From Dactylellina haptotyla (taxonomy: Eukaryota > Ascomycota > Orbiliomycetes > Orbiliales > Orbiliaceae): a DNA stretch of 64,000 nucleotides. Each line of letters opens with the position of its first letter. Within the stretch, counting starts at the first letter, position 1. Below the pieces are notes generated by a model. It searched no databases. It saw nothing but the letters and a program-made list of their open reading frames with translations, and was not told the origin of the DNA. A program made the position numbers and the translations under genes. Location: positions 2,728,001 to 2,792,000 of the forward strand of contig CM062381.1 in assembly GCA_031310005.1 (NCBI GenBank). Direction: 5' to 3'. Of this stretch, positions 25,951-56,309 are shown piece by piece.

Positions 25951-27628
25951 ATGAAGGTTTCCAGAATCGCCTCTGTTGCTTTCAACATCGCCCTCGCCCT
26001 CTCAGCTCCTGCTGGTACTCCCGGCCTCACTGGAGGACTCACCGGTGGAATCACTGGAGGCCAAAGTGGAGGACTCACCGGTGGAATCACTGGAGGTCAA
26101 ACTGGAGGACTCACCGGTGGGATCATTGGAGGCCAAACTGGAGGCCAAACTGGAGGAATTGTCGGTGGAATCACTGGAGGCCAAAGTGGAGGACTTACCG
26201 GTGGAATCATTGGAGGTCAAACTGGTGGTACTACCACTGGCGCCACTGATGTCAATGTGAGCCTGGGTGGCAGCACCAGCACTTCTAATACCGGTACTGG
26301 CGGACTTACTGGCGGACTTACTGGGGGTGGCGCTGGTGGACTCACCGATGGAATCACTGGCGGCCTCACTGGAGGTGGTGCCGGTGGCCTTACTGATGGA
26401 ATCACTGGTGGCCTCACTGGGGGTGGAGCTGGTGGGCTTACTGACGGAATCACTGGCGGCCTCACTGGGGGTGGAGCTGGTGGGCTTACTGACGGAATCA
26501 CTGGCGGCCTCACTGGAGGTGGCGCTGGTGGCCTTACTGATGGAATCACTGGCGGCCTCACTGGAGGCGGCGCCGGTGGCCTTACTGATGGAATCACTGG
26601 CGGGCTGACCGGAGGCGGCGCTGGAGGCATCACTGATGGAATCACTGCTTCCCTCCTTTCAGGCGGTGGCGGTAGCGGTGATCTCACTGGTGGACTCACT
26701 GGAGGTATCCTTGGAGGCGACGGCGGTAGTGGTGGAATCACTGCAGGTCTCCTTGGAGGTGAAGGCGGTAGTGGTGGAATCCTCAGTATTCTTGGCGGCG
26801 GTGAGTCCGGTAGCAGCACCGGTGGTAGCGCGATCTCTGGAGCTACCGACATCCTTGGAGGTGGCACACTTGTCTCCGGTGGCAGCGGCAGCGGGCTTAC
26901 GACCCTCGCCGGCGGCATTTTCGACACCAACTCTCTTCTCGATCTTCAATCTGCCTTCAGCGGTATGGGTGTCGGAAGCTCTACGAACACAGGGGGTAGT
27001 GTAAAGGGTGGATTCGGTGGTGTTGGTGCCATCTTCTCCGTCATCGCTGGATCCCGCAATGGATTCTTCCTGTTCCGCAAGGCTGTCGACATCCTCAGTG
27101 AGAAGGCTTGCGACTTTGCTTTGAACGAAGCCGGTCGATTCGCTGACTTCTGGGTCCTTGTCCCAGTTCAATCCGTTCAGGTACGTTTATTAACACACTG
27201 ATATCAAAATGAGCATACTAACGCTACGGTTAAAATAGGAACTACTTACTGCTTGGGCCGAGCTTGCCTCTGTTGGTGCTGTCGAGGGTGTCTCCGCTGC
27301 TGAGTTCAAGCAGACCCGTGAGCGCGCTGAACTTGCCCGTTCCGTCCTCTTCTTCATCCACAAGGGTACTTTCGAGGGAGTCCAGCCAGGTGAATTCATG
27401 ACCACCACTTCCTACTTGCGATGCAGACAGCTCTCCGACACTCGAGGAATCGATTTTGTCAATGTTGGAGAGGAGAACCCAAAGGAATTGGGAACAAACG
27501 GTCCCATCCTCAACCCATTGAAGACTGAGAAGGCCGAGAAGACTGAGAAGACCGACAAGGCCGAGAAGACCGACAAGGCCGCCAAGCCAGCCAGGAAGGC
27601 CAGGAAGGCCAGGAAGATGAAGCACTAG
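25951..27628 (+). CDS. secreted Gly/Thr-rich repeat protein with Lys-rich tail, function unknown
   Basis: Two exons, 25951-27180 and 27239-27628, give 539 residues. A signal peptide (about residues 1-18, ending ALALSAPAG) is followed by irregular GG(L/I)TGG(Q/I)(S/T)GG repeats (about 28-95). Next come seven near-identical 16-residue units, GGLTGGGAGGLTDGIT (residues 121-232), then looser GG-rich repeats to about 345. A globular C-terminal part (about 355-510) contains FGGVGAIFSVIAGSRNGFFL and ELLTAWAELASVG, with Cys in EKACDF and LRCRQL; I do not recognise the domain. The last 37 residues are Lys/Ala-rich (EKTEKTDKAEKTDKAAKPAR). Predicted secreted, perhaps wall-associated or self-assembling; this is inference. 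Other long open frames over the repeats arise because the 48-bp unit lacks stops in several frames. Confidence 0.85.
26311..26646 (+). repeat. seven tandem 48-bp coding repeats
   Basis: Seven consecutive 48-bp units encode the 16-residue motif GGLTGGGAGGLTDGIT, the last unit having Ile for Leu at position 11. The units differ mainly at third codon positions; the third and fourth are the most alike, suggesting recent duplication within the array. Confidence 0.9.
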
Positions 27629-51773: not shown

Positions 51774-52907
51774 TCACACGTTGTTTGTCATACTGATCCT
51801 GTCGTCAAAATCCGGGAGGTCTTTAAGCGCAATGTCACCGTCTTTGTTTTTGATTGTCCCAAAATCATTATTCTTTTCTTGTGGAAAATACGAAACATAG
51901 TCCGGTGTTCGAAAGAACCAGGGGTGAGGTGTCCAGTTTGTATTCTCGTCCGCCCAGCAACCAAAGTAAACCGGCTTCCCGCGACCTAGCGATGCAATCC
52001 CCCGCCATCGATAAACAGGTTTCGTTTTTTGGAAGGGTTTTGACTTTTGGTACTGGATGTCTTGTGAACAGACAGGCCACATGTGTGTATGATAAACAGG
52101 CAGTATCCTGTATGAACCTGGTGCGTTAGCATATTTTATAGGTCTTGGGAGTACAATTCTGGGGACAACTGAGCCAAATCTGGATACAGATCCGTCACTT
52201 ACTTAGTAGTGGGATGGCCGGCGTATACCCAGGCCATCCAATACTGATACCGATTGTTCAAATCACATTTCATCATCCCAACTTGACCGATTCTTCCAGG
52301 CGTGTCTGAGGTTTTTGAAGGGAGGATAGGAAATTCTGCATCAGGACTATAAGTTAAGCACAGGCCGGAATATGCGTTCTCAATGGTTCCTTTCCAATAA
52401 GATGGCATACCGCCTTCTTTGCGGAACATTTTGACCACACCATTGAAATTCCATTGCCACTGAGGCTTCGGGAAATTGATAAAATAGTCCTGACACCCTG
52501 AACGTGGTTTACACTGGCATTCATCGACCATCAGGTTCTTCTCGAAGTTCACTTCTGTTGTGTTATGACGGAGACACAATGGAGCTGTTTTACCATTCCC
52601 CACTCCGTATTCTGCCTCCCGGTATAGATTTAATTTAGCACTTAATCATTTCCGATGCATTTATAAGCTTAAAAATTCCTTATGTTTTATAAAAAAGAAA
52701 AGAAATCGTAGCGAGCTTACCTAAAGCTCCAGACCAGATATATTCCATTGGATGGTTGCGGTTTGTGTACTCGGCATATAGTGCCTTTGGATAATTGAAT
52801 GGTATGAAATCTTTGTTTGTATCATATTCATAATAATCGGGAGGATTAAAATATGAGACCACCAGAACTGGGAAACCAAGATATACCGCAGTATGTAGAA
52901 ATAGCAT
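51774..52907 (-). CDS. secreted tandem-family protein A (possible beta-trefoil), unknown function
   Basis: Three exons, 52907-52721, 52611-52203 and 52107-51774, give 309 residues, joined in phases 1 and 2. A signal peptide is likely (about 1-18, MLFLHTAVYLGFPVLVVS). A Tyr/Asp-rich N-terminal part (YFNPPDYYEYDTNKDF) is followed in exon 2 by ECQCKPRSGC, FPKPQWQWNFNGVV, GLCLTYSP and CDLNNRYQYW, and in exon 3 by MWPVC, VYFGCWADE and HPWFFRTPDY. These align in order with gene B next door (WNFRGVV, GRCLTYDP, CDHDNNGQLW, VYYGC, HPWMY). The CLTY..CD..NQ-W spacing resembles ricin-B-type beta-trefoil repeats, but this is only a resemblance. It is the last (downstream) of three same-strand paralogues, in AT-richer DNA. 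The second acceptor at 52108 was chosen because it opens the frame into exon 3. Confidence 0.78.
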
Positions 52908-53440
52908 TGAAGGTCCTTATAAGAAACTATCCTTGGTCTATGGAAATCTCGCTTGGGTGTGATTAAACAATCTTTTTCGCTAGGGATTTTTTTTTTTTAA
53001 AAAAAAGGACGGGTTTACGTGTAGGCAATTATTTGATATATATAAAATATCTTTCAACTTGAATTCAACATAAGTGTTTATAACGGAATCATTAAGTTAC
53101 CTCTGTATACGATTGCTCTGCCTCTGGCAGACCTGTTTTACTGAACTAGGATAGTATCTGGTTTACGAGAAAAACAATTCCCCTAAAAACTCATCTAACA
53201 TCATGCGTTTTACGCCCCCAACAATCAAAGTGCTGTGCTATGTCAAAAGTTATATCTGCGGTATTTATAGAAATTTTGTATGTTGCAAGCTGCAACTAAC
53301 AAAATAAGAGCAAGCCGGCAAAATATAGGGCCGAGCACCAGTCTTCATGCCATGGCGTAGTTCCATCTACTATAAACCATTAATACCCTATTCCAACTGA
53401 GCTTTTGTCTCCTATTATAGGAGCGACGTAACTCCTAGGG
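52908..53440. other. spacer between tandem genes A and B
   Basis: AT-rich, with long A/T runs around 52991-53008; no gene seen. It holds the promoter of gene A and the 3' end of gene B. Confidence 0.55.
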
Positions 53441-54682
53441 CTACTGTTTGCCAAGATTACTAGGCTTAGGAGGTACAGTAGGTCGAGGTTTCTTGGTTTG
53501 CGGCGGTGGGGGTGGGGGCTTTTTCTTGACTTCCTTAAGTCTAGGTTGATAATCCACAATATCTAGGTCAAGAATAAACTGATCCATCCTATTCCTGTCA
53601 GGAAAGAAATCATCATCTTCATAGATTCTGTACATCCAGGGATGGTGATCGAATAGTGCGTGTTCATGAACTCCAATACAGCCGTAGTAAACCGCTTGAT
53701 TGTCTAAAGCGATTAAACCCCGCCGAAGACTCTCTCCCATAGGATTAGTACACCCTGGCCAACGGTGGGTTATATGCGGGATAATGCTAAATATCGAAGT
53801 TAGCGTATGCCATGATTCGGGATTTTTGAAATACAAGTCTGATTGTACAAAGCTAAGGCATTTAAATCGTACCTCGTCGGACCGTCTTTACTAAATAACC
53901 ATACAATCCAAAGCTGCCCGTTGTTGTCATGATCGCAGGTGTCTAATTTCACCTCTCCGATTTTTCCCTGTTGATTACCCTCGGTATCGAAATCTGGAGC
54001 AACTTTAGGGGGGTCGTATGTTAAGCAGCGCCCGTTTTCTGCGTTTGAAATAAACCCCTGCCAAAAGGTGGGAAGGTCTAGATCTGGAAGTGCCCAGCTA
54101 GTGACATCTGAGATTTTTACCACTCCCCTGAAATTCCATCGAAATGGCGGTTTTGGGTGGTTTATATTGTCATCTTTGCAATTCCCCGGATCGCATTCGC
54201 ACGTTTGGGCCAACACCTTTTTTTTTTCTGGATCGGGTCGAAGACATTTAACATCGGGCTTCTTCAACTTATTCCTCGACTGGATTTTGAAAGTCAATTC
54301 TGTATATTTAAGCGAATCACGGTGTTAGACACATAGTAACTCTTACTATTAGATTGGTTTATTTATCTTTTGAATTTGGCTGGAGACGCAGAGAATGAAT
54401 TTAGTTATACTTACCTATAGACCCGGACCATCCAAAGTCAACCTGGGTTCGCGCTTCGTATTTAAAAAGGTAAGGAATCATATATCCGGATTCTCGCAGC
54501 AAGCCCTCATCGTCGTCATCGTCATCTTCATCTCCAAACATTCGTTTGGAGAATTCCGAAATTCCTCCGCTTTCAGGGTTTGATGTCTTGATGGCTGACG
54601 TTATCCCGCGTGTAAAATTAAAAAACATATACCACAGGATAATAAATCTAGACAAAGTGTTTAGCCTGGTAGATTGCCTCAT
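53441..54682 (-). CDS. secreted tandem-family protein B (possible beta-trefoil), unknown function
   Basis: Three exons, 54682-54415, 54299-53873 and 53786-53441, give 346 residues, with intron phases 1 and 2 as in genes A and C. An N-terminal hydrophobic segment (about residues 12-30, FIILWYMFFNF) suggests a signal peptide or anchor. It is followed by an acidic run (GDEDDDDDDEG) and DFGWSGSI at the exon 1 end. Exon 2 holds QTCECDPGNCKDD, HPKPPFRWNFRGVV, FWQGFISNAENGRCLTYDPP and LDTCDHDNNGQLWIVW. Exon 3 holds THRWPGC, ALDNQAVYYGCIG and HHPWMYRIYEDDD. The C-terminus is a Lys/Pro-rich tail (KKKPPPPPPQTKKPRPTVPP) not present in A or C. It is closest to A. Function is unknown; a carbohydrate-binding fold is only a guess. 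Confidence 0.78.
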
Positions 54683-55272
54683 CGATGCTTCATCTAAATT
54701 GGCCGCGATAAGAGCCGAGCAGAAAACTTTCTTCGATTTCTATGTACCAGAAATGCCGACAGAATATTCCTTGAGGGGAGTAGTTAAAAAATAAGATTGT
54801 AGATTCACTCAAATCGACAGCCGACAGTTGATTACAGTTTACTGTCAGGCATTTCAGCATCTGGCTAGCCATGGCTGTACCAGACACCAACTATTATGTT
54901 ACTGCAATTGCGCAATGCACCACCCCAAACAGACCTGCTGGCGATGTACCCGAAACACATTGATGTTAGAGTCTCCCCAGTGCATATACCGAGTTAACAC
55001 GCCACAACTCCAAATTTATTACGCATCGGTAACAATTCGGCCCAACTGTATGTTGGCGAGGGGTTAAGTCTTGCCATCCTAGATCCGATGGAGTGAAACT
55101 CATCGAATTTCCAAAATGTTGGATCATATTTTTTATTTGGTACTCTTAAATTCGGTATTATATTATTGGATCATAACAAGATGATATCTATGCATATTTA
55201 ACAAACCCGCCATACATATAATACCTGAATGTGACACACAATACAAATTTATCGCACAGGGACACTTCTATT
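54683..55272. other. spacer between tandem genes B and C
   Basis: AT-rich, with no supported gene; promoter of B and 3' flank of C. Confidence 0.55.
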
Positions 55273-56309
55273 TTACAATGACTCCTGTACCCCAGGCCGA
55301 CTTGCATCATATTCTCTATAATTAGAAAACATGCTTCCACACACATCACCCCACCACTGGGCCATCGGCTGAGTGTTCCCATCCGCGGAATAAGTTTCTT
55401 TACAAAAGTTTTCTTTCTTACCTGCATTATCCCGCTTGCAGCAAGTTGCTTTACTGAAAATACTCCAGTCTACAGCGATCTGCCAAAGGTTTGTGGTGAT
55501 ATTCTGATACGGCCATCCCCACTCTGCTGATACGGGAAGCCTGAACCATTTACCCTTTCCGCAGCCGTACGCAATGAGGGATGGCAGCGGACCGCCAATG
55601 ATAGTTGGCTCCATACCATCCGGGCATTTATGGTTCCATTTTTTTGGAATGATACTATAATATTAAGATAGTATTTAGTAAAGAACTTTGTAGATAGCTG
55701 CGATTAATCAAAATCCAACTCACCCATGCGTCAGGTGCGGATCCATGTAACTCCTCAAACTGAAATGCTGATACTCGTTCGCCTCGTTACACACTTCGGA
55801 GGTCAATGTGCCCCATGTAATAGCTTCTTTCTGAGATGCGTGCGGAAAACTCTTGGCGGGTCGTGGGCGCCACTGCATACACCGCCCTGATGCTTGGTTA
55901 CCTACCAAACCCAGGAAATCGCCTTTCTTTGTAGCCATATTTTTACTTTTGCTCAACAGCCAGTACTCTCCCTGATCCGCTACTTGCCCTGCTTCAGTAC
56001 AATTACGGGTTCCGAACGGCTGCCAGGTGGTATCTGGTGCGGACCAATCAATCAAACACATCGGCCGCTCGTTCGGCTCGCTCCATACTATAGAAGAGGG
56101 AACAAAGGAATTAGAGTTAGACATTATTTTCCAGTCATATCGTGTATATCGTGTATAATTGATGACTTACCAAACCGTTGTACAAAATCGCCCCCGAAAA
56201 GTTCAATGGGCGGGAATGTCGGCGATCTTATTCCGTAGTACCCGTCATCGCCTGCCCTGCAGCCATTAATTAATGAAACGACAATAACGAATAATAAACT
56301 TCCAGACAT
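55273..56309 (-). CDS. secreted tandem-family protein C, divergent paralogue, unknown function
   Basis: Three exons, 56309-56171, 56087-55724 and 55654-55273, give 294 residues, joined in phases 1 and 2 exactly as in genes A and B. A clear signal peptide (about 1-19, LLFVIVVSLINGCRA) starts the protein. Exon 2 contains WSEPNERPMCLIDWSAP, DQGEYWLLSKSKN, ASGRCMQWRPRP, WGTLTSEVCNEANEYQHF and ends THG. Exon 3 contains WNHKCPDGMEP, LPSLIAYGCGKGKWFRLP and a Cys-rich end (CCKRDN, NFCKET, WGDVCG). The GRCxxW/Y..C..x..F pattern and the YGC element match A and B, although overall similarity is low. It is the most upstream of the three genes. It probably arose by an older duplication. Confidence 0.75.

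What the first reader, a model, noticed from the sequence alone, without database searches (positions are those of the whole stretch)
51774..56309. Tandem cluster of three secreted paralogues with conserved intron phases and a possible beta-trefoil core
Three adjacent same-strand genes each have a short exon encoding a signal peptide, a phase-1 intron, a central exon, a phase-2 intron and a last exon. Central exons share C-x-C or Cys-rich starts, KP..WNF-GVV (A, B), G-x-C-(L/M)-(T/Q)-(Y/W) and CD/CN..N..Q-(Y/L/H)-(W/F). Last exons share Y(F/Y/-)GC and HPW-type motifs. The identical intron phases show common descent even though gene C is very divergent. The block is AT-richer than its housekeeping neighbours, as expected for fast-evolving accessory genes. 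The Q-x-W-like pattern hints at a ricin-B-type lectin fold. I know of no described family with this layout.
Basis: partly seen in the sequence, partly recalled or inferred. Interest (0 to 1): 0.72.

Follow-up and report, generated by a model that had tools for sequence, protein, structure and literature searches.

The report
Secreted cysteine-rich gene family, nematode-trapping fungus
Three neighbouring genes, with a fourth copy on another chromosome, appear to encode related secreted proteins in a worm-trapping fungus; one segment looks like part of a lectin-type fold, but neither fold nor function is shown.

Summary
Three intact three-exon genes (A, B, C) lie on the minus strand at exactly 51774-56309, each with a hydrophobic N-terminus, a phase-1 and a phase-2 intron. 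The genome search found one more copy, D, on contig C1, with the same phases. A, B and D are clear homologues (E 1e-30 to 2e-43) and share all eight cysteines. C is divergent (best E 8e-5, to D).

Contig C1 has exactly the length published for the longest sequence of Dactylellina haptotyla YMF1.03409, a nematode-trapping fungus.

The beta-trefoil idea is half supported. The middle of three putative units hits only ricin-type trefoils in the PDB (5 of 5; 3 of 3 without C; E 0.047-2.5) and only Ricin_B_lectin in Pfam (2 of 4 copies, below cut-off). The outer units hit none (0 of 11), internal repeats are not significant, and both AlphaFold models failed (pLDDT 37, 40). The usual sugar-contact Asp (recalled) is missing.

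Verdict: a real secreted paralogue family without a Pfam family, of a kind already described in this species.

The parts
51774..52907 (-). Gene A: exons 52907-52721, 52611-52203, 52107-51774; 309 aa, hydrophobic N-terminus, 8 Cys after it
53441..54682 (-). Gene B: exons 54682-54415, 54299-53873, 53786-53441; 346 aa; acidic stretch (DEDDDDDDE) and Pro-rich C-terminal tail; 8 Cys
55273..56309 (-). Gene C, divergent: exons 56309-56171, 56087-55724, 55654-55273; 294 aa; six Cys in the core (four align with invariant family Cys) and four in its own C-terminal extension
52612..52720 (-). Gene A intron 1, 109 nt, phase 1
52108..52202 (-). Gene A intron 2, 95 nt, phase 2 (acceptor chosen among three in-frame AGs)
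54300..54414 (-). Gene B intron 1, 115 nt, phase 1
53787..53872 (-). Gene B intron 2, 86 nt, phase 2
56088..56170 (-). Gene C intron 1, 83 nt, phase 1
55655..55723 (-). Gene C intron 2, 69 nt, phase 2
52205..52399 (-). Unit R2 of gene A (3' half of exon 2, limits set by me): G-T-I-E-N-A-Y-S-G-L-C-L-T-Y ... C-D-L-N-N-R-Y-Q-Y-W, the ricin-type-like segment

Best explanation
The cluster is a small, anciently duplicated family of secreted, cysteine-rich proteins of a nematode-trapping fungus: three in tandem, one dispersed. The mature protein is most likely one all-beta domain of about 160-210 residues made of three units, mostly of about 60-75 residues, each with a cysteine pair; units 1 and 2 are in exon 2 and unit 3 in exon 3. 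The middle unit is a divergent ricin-type (QxW) beta-trefoil repeat. Shown here: gene structure, paralogy, the conserved 8-Cys pattern of A, B and D, and consistent though sub-threshold trefoil matches of unit 2. Inferred: that units 1 and 3 complete a trefoil, that the cysteines pair within units, that the protein is secreted, and that it works outside the cell as a binding protein, acting through variable loops on glycans or proteins of nematodes, competitors or the fungus's own surface. Because the usual sugar-contact Asp is missing, a classical galactose lectin is unlikely.
For: Gene models and phases. Fourth paralogue D with the same architecture. All 8 Cys of A, B and D conserved, with none besides. 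R2 profile: 5 of 5 PDB hits are ricin-type trefoils (actinohivin x2, mannose-receptor cysteine-rich domain x2, an agglutinin B chain; E 0.22-2.5), and 3 of 3 without C (the same two actinohivins and GALNT4 residues 537-574; E 0.047-0.21), in all six distinct sequences; profiles of R1 and R3 (A, B, D) give 0 of 11. That these entries are trefoils is recalled. Pfam with R2 alone: Ricin_B_lectin is the only family, B 0.017 and A 0.067. hhalign against this genome's own ricin-B domains: A+B+D 28.6 (probability 24%), with C added 25.2 (10%); 0 of 100 column shuffles reach either. Purifying selection: dN 0.70-0.83 with saturated dS among A, B, D. Host: contig C1 has exactly the published length.
Against: No hit reaches a curated threshold or E < 0.01. 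A full-length A+B+D profile finds nothing in the PDB and a whole-core profile only unrelated chains. Singly, against the ricin-B set, A, C and D score 18.2-18.9; 2, 4 and 2 of 119 other open frames score higher (one of these frames is D's own exon 2, at 18.5); only B (24.5) beats all (best 22.4). R1-R2-R3 similarity is not clearly above shuffles (11 of 94, 4 of 97 and 67 of 100 reach it). AlphaFold models have pLDDT 37 and 40 and no useful fold match. No expression data. C joins the family on thin evidence.
Confidence: 0.6

Rival explanations
1. An orphan cysteine-rich secreted family with an unrelated fold; the GxIxNAxSGxCL and CDxxNxxQxW motifs of unit 2 resemble a QxW repeat by convergence or chance.
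For: Sub-threshold scores throughout; units 1 and 3 find no trefoils; whole-core profile finds only unrelated chains; structure models failed; internal repeat not significant; three of four paralogues score singly within the range of other frames.
Against: All hits of the two R2 profile searches (5 of 5 and 3 of 3) and the only Pfam family hit by R2 are ricin-type trefoils; 0 of 100 shuffles reach the hhalign score.
Confidence: 0.3
2. A trefoil protease inhibitor or structural wall protein rather than a carbohydrate-binding protein.
For: The Asp that contacts sugar in ricin-type repeats is not kept in R2 (T, T, Q, T) or in R1 of A, B, D; units of about 60 residues or more are longer than ricin's (recalled).
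Against: No inhibitor family hit in Pfam; a ricin-B domain of this genome over the Pfam cut-off (L002) also lacks the Asp; no functional data of either kind.
Confidence: 0.25
3. C is not a member: an unrelated secreted gene that sits beside A and B and shares intron phases by chance.
For: A-C E 0.10; a whole-genome search with C finds only C and two weak stretches taken as chance (E 0.04 and 0.11); C has its own C-terminal extension; no HPW motif; only four of its six core Cys align with invariant family Cys.
Against: C-D 8e-5 and B-C 0.004; exon 2 C-D 1.2e-5; same two phases; I-I-P directly after intron 2, with only one in-frame acceptor; adjacent and on the same strand.
Confidence: 0.1

Closest known systems
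Ricin_B_lectin (PF00652) / RicinB_lectin_2 (PF14200), QxW beta-trefoil lectins
   Same: Unit 2 has G-x-I-x-N-x-x-S-G-x-C-L and C-x-x-x-N-x-x-Q-x-W (with variation among the copies) in the same order, with the C...C pair; its weak hits in PDB and Pfam belong here.
   Different: Below the curated cut-off (13.8 and 15.7 against 29 bits), units longer than ricin's (recalled), units 1 and 3 not recognisable, sugar-contact Asp (recalled) absent from unit 2, two extra Cys in unit 1 of A, B, D.
Lineage- and species-specific small secreted proteins of Monacrosporium (Dactylellina) haptotylum (PMC3828140; passages read)
   Same: Same species; secreted-looking, no Pfam domain, tandem duplication, conserved cysteines with strong divergence elsewhere; that paper reports 147 tandem pairs and a five-member orphan family with 12 conserved Cys.
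   Different: Eight rather than 12 Cys; A (309 aa) and B (346 aa) exceed that paper's 300-aa limit; no RIP signature seen in the genes. Whether these genes are in that paper's tables was not checked.
Secreted virulence proteins of nematode-trapping fungi: CyrA (PMC8568293) and TrsA/Egh16-like (PMC12377627); search listing and start of abstract only
   Same: Proteins of Orbiliomycetes reported as virulence factors against nematodes.
   Different: No sequence comparison was made; the present family has no Egh16 (PF11327) hit.

Membership tests
Ricin_B_lectin PF00652 | Score over the curated cut-off (29 bits) | tested here: not met
   No hit full length; R2 alone 15.7 bits (B), 13.8 (A), none for C and D
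Ricin_B_lectin PF00652 | QxW-type repeats with CL...C pair (recalled definition) | tested here: inconclusive
   Unit 2: 4 of 4 copies have C-(L/M)...C-(D/N)-x-x-N-x-x-Q-x-(W/F); units 1 and 3 of A, B, D have a Cys pair and a later Trp but no recognisable QxW
Ricin_B_lectin PF00652 | Three-fold internal repeat / beta-trefoil fold | tested here: inconclusive
   Repeats not clearly above shuffles; models pLDDT 37 and 40; fold searches of them uninformative
Ricin_B_lectin PF00652 | Sugar-contact Asp in C-x-D (recalled; a mark of sugar-binding repeats, not of all members) | tested here: not met
   R2: CLT, CLT, CMQ, CLT; R1: CLR, CLR, CLID (C), CLK. Of this genome's four ricin-B-like proteins read, L001 and L003 keep C-x-D in all three repeats; L002 and L004 do not
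Orphan secreted proteins of D. haptotyla | Secretion signal | tested here: inconclusive
   In 4 of 4 the best 11-mer within the first 45 residues (1.81-3.11) is more hydrophobic than any beyond residue 60 of the same protein (0.65-1.65); no SignalP available
Orphan secreted proteins of D. haptotyla | No Pfam domain over cut-off | tested here: met
Orphan secreted proteins of D. haptotyla | No homologue in other species | not testable with these tools
   No fungal genomes other than the window's own can be searched; exon-2 profile found none in bacterial/archaeal genome contigs or viral contigs
Orphan secreted proteins of D. haptotyla | Length under 300 aa (small secreted protein) | tested here: inconclusive
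   C 294 and D 250 meet it; A 309 and B 346 do not

The most novel reading that the evidence does not exclude
A new branch of the QxW beta-trefoil superfamily: three long units, a conserved eight-cysteine scaffold and no canonical sugar site, used by nematode-trapping fungi as a variable extracellular binding scaffold facing the prey.
Probability: 0.35. Interest if true: 0.5.

Novelty: new member of a known kind. Interest (0 to 1): 0.35.

Why it matters
In the 2013 study of this species, 71% of species-specific genes were orphans and the species-specific set was enriched for secreted proteins (PMC3828140, passages). A four-member family with fixed introns and cysteines gives a handle: it ties an orphan tandem cluster to a candidate fold and says which residues to test. 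If confirmed, it would suggest that some orphan secreted proteins of these fungi are strongly diverged lectin-fold proteins rather than new folds.
Full report
What is there. On the minus strand, 51774-56309 holds three intact genes of three exons each. Each starts with a hydrophobic N-terminus, has a phase-1 intron after exon 1 and a phase-2 intron after exon 2; all six introns are GT...AG, 69-115 nt.

The family is real. A and B align at E 6e-32. Searching the whole genome with A, B (without its last 26 residues), C and D finds one further member, D, at C1:3034462-3035438 (minus), with the same two phases; A-D E 2e-43 and B-D 1e-30. The tool calls such counts lower bounds. A, B and D have exactly eight cysteines each, aligned with each other except for one that shifts by a residue or so. 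Among these three, third codon positions are 28-32% identical against 50-58% at positions 1 and 2, with saturated dS, so these are old duplicates under purifying selection. C is the weak case: its best match is D (8e-5), then B (0.004), and the signal sits in one stretch of exon 2. It nevertheless shares both phases and the I-I-P start of exon 3, and it is adjacent on the same strand. It has six cysteines in the core, four of which align with invariant family ones.

The host. Contig C1 of this genome is 7,783,607 bases long, exactly the longest sequence reported for Dactylellina haptotyla YMF1.03409 (PMC10580851, passages read), whose assembly is 39.56 Mb with 11 contigs anchored into 10 scaffolds. 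G000 is 39.81 Mb in 11 contigs; the extra 0.25 Mb is unexplained. Fifty-five stretches match Egh16-like/DUF3129; a paper reports over 20 such genes in several nematode-trapping fungi and fewer than 5 in about 99% of species scanned (PMC10662756, passages read). Stretches are not genes, and some genes are split over two stretches.

Fold. No full-length protein reaches a Pfam cut-off. By sequence the PDB gives nothing credible for A alone, the C core or the A+B+D profile. I split the core into three units by the position of the cysteine pairs. Unit 2 as a profile of four paralogues hits five PDB sequences, all ricin-type trefoils (E 0.22-2.5); without C it hits three, again all trefoils (E 0.047-0.21), two of them the same actinohivins. 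The same kind of profile (A, B, D) of unit 1 gives 7 hits, all methylated-DNA-protein-cysteine methyltransferases, and of unit 3 gives 4 hits, none a trefoil as far as I know. In Pfam, unit 2 hits only Ricin_B_lectin, for 2 of 4 copies, best E 0.017. A profile of A, B and D aligned to this genome's own ricin-B domains scores 28.6, with C 25.2; 0 of 100 column shuffles reach either. Of 119 other open frames of 120 codons or more, one of which turned out to be D's own exon 2, the best scores 22.4; but those are single sequences, and singly only B (24.5) beats them, while 2, 4 and 2 of them score above A (18.7), C (18.2) and D (18.9). As a yardstick, L004, a secreted-looking protein of this genome whose PF00652 match is also below cut-off, finds ricin-type chains in the PDB only at E 0.035-1.1 (3 of 3 hits), so weak E-values are not unusual for such domains. 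That the named PDB entries are trefoils is recalled.

Against this, units 1 and 3 are not recognisable, the three units do not clearly resemble each other beyond shuffles, the whole-core profile finds no trefoil, and the two structure predictions (exon 2 of A; gene C with its intron read through) are too poor to use. Unit 2 as a ricin-type repeat is therefore likely; the full trefoil is an inference.

Function. The residue that contacts sugar in ricin-type repeats (Asp in C-x-D, recalled) is T, T, Q, T in unit 2 of A, B, C, D, and R, R, I (then D), K in unit 1. Two of four ricin-B-like proteins of this genome keep it (L001, L003) and two do not (L002, L004), so its loss speaks against a classical sugar site but not against the fold. 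An extracellular binding protein or inhibitor is the likeliest role; the link to predation rests only on the host's lifestyle and on published trends for its secreted proteins (PMC3828140 and PMC4237727, passages read).

Composition. GC of the cluster with flanks is 0.434 against 0.487 for the window median, but close to the published genome mean of 45.4%. The genes show no RIP signature by customary limits; the A-B gap does.

What is known. The 2013 study of this species describes tandem duplicated, fast diverging secreted orphans, the largest orphan family having five members with 12 conserved cysteines. The present family fits that kind; by its cysteine number it is another one. Six searches of the open-access library showed no paper on such a family among the rows listed (15 of 146; 49: 3 of 3; 50: 12 of 18; 60: 11 of 11; 70: 15 of 1,859; 111: 12 of 1,866); they did not search for gene identifiers, and supplementary tables were not read.

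Noticed in passing
window 25951-27201 (+): Open frame of 416 aa with a hydrophobic N-terminus and many GGLTGG/GGITGG-type repeats (tandem repeats 26026-26800, periods 12-84).
   Followed up: no
L004 (C3:3566070-3569339): Open frame of 433 codons, secreted-looking, with a sub-threshold ricin-B-like domain (GCLNYDP, close to RCLTYDP of gene B) and a tail of TEGFSTIPAPT-type repeats.
   Followed up: partly
whole genome: 55 stretches match Egh16-like PF11327, a strong expansion reported for nematode-trapping fungi.
   Followed up: partly
window 51774-54682 and C1:3034462-3035438: D, the dispersed paralogue on C1, is closer to A (36% identity) than B is (30%), so the dispersed copy does not look like an outgroup of the A-B pair; no tree was made.
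   Followed up: no
whole genome: G000 is about 0.25 Mb longer than the published chromosome-level assembly; 5.8S rRNA was not found in it.
   Followed up: no
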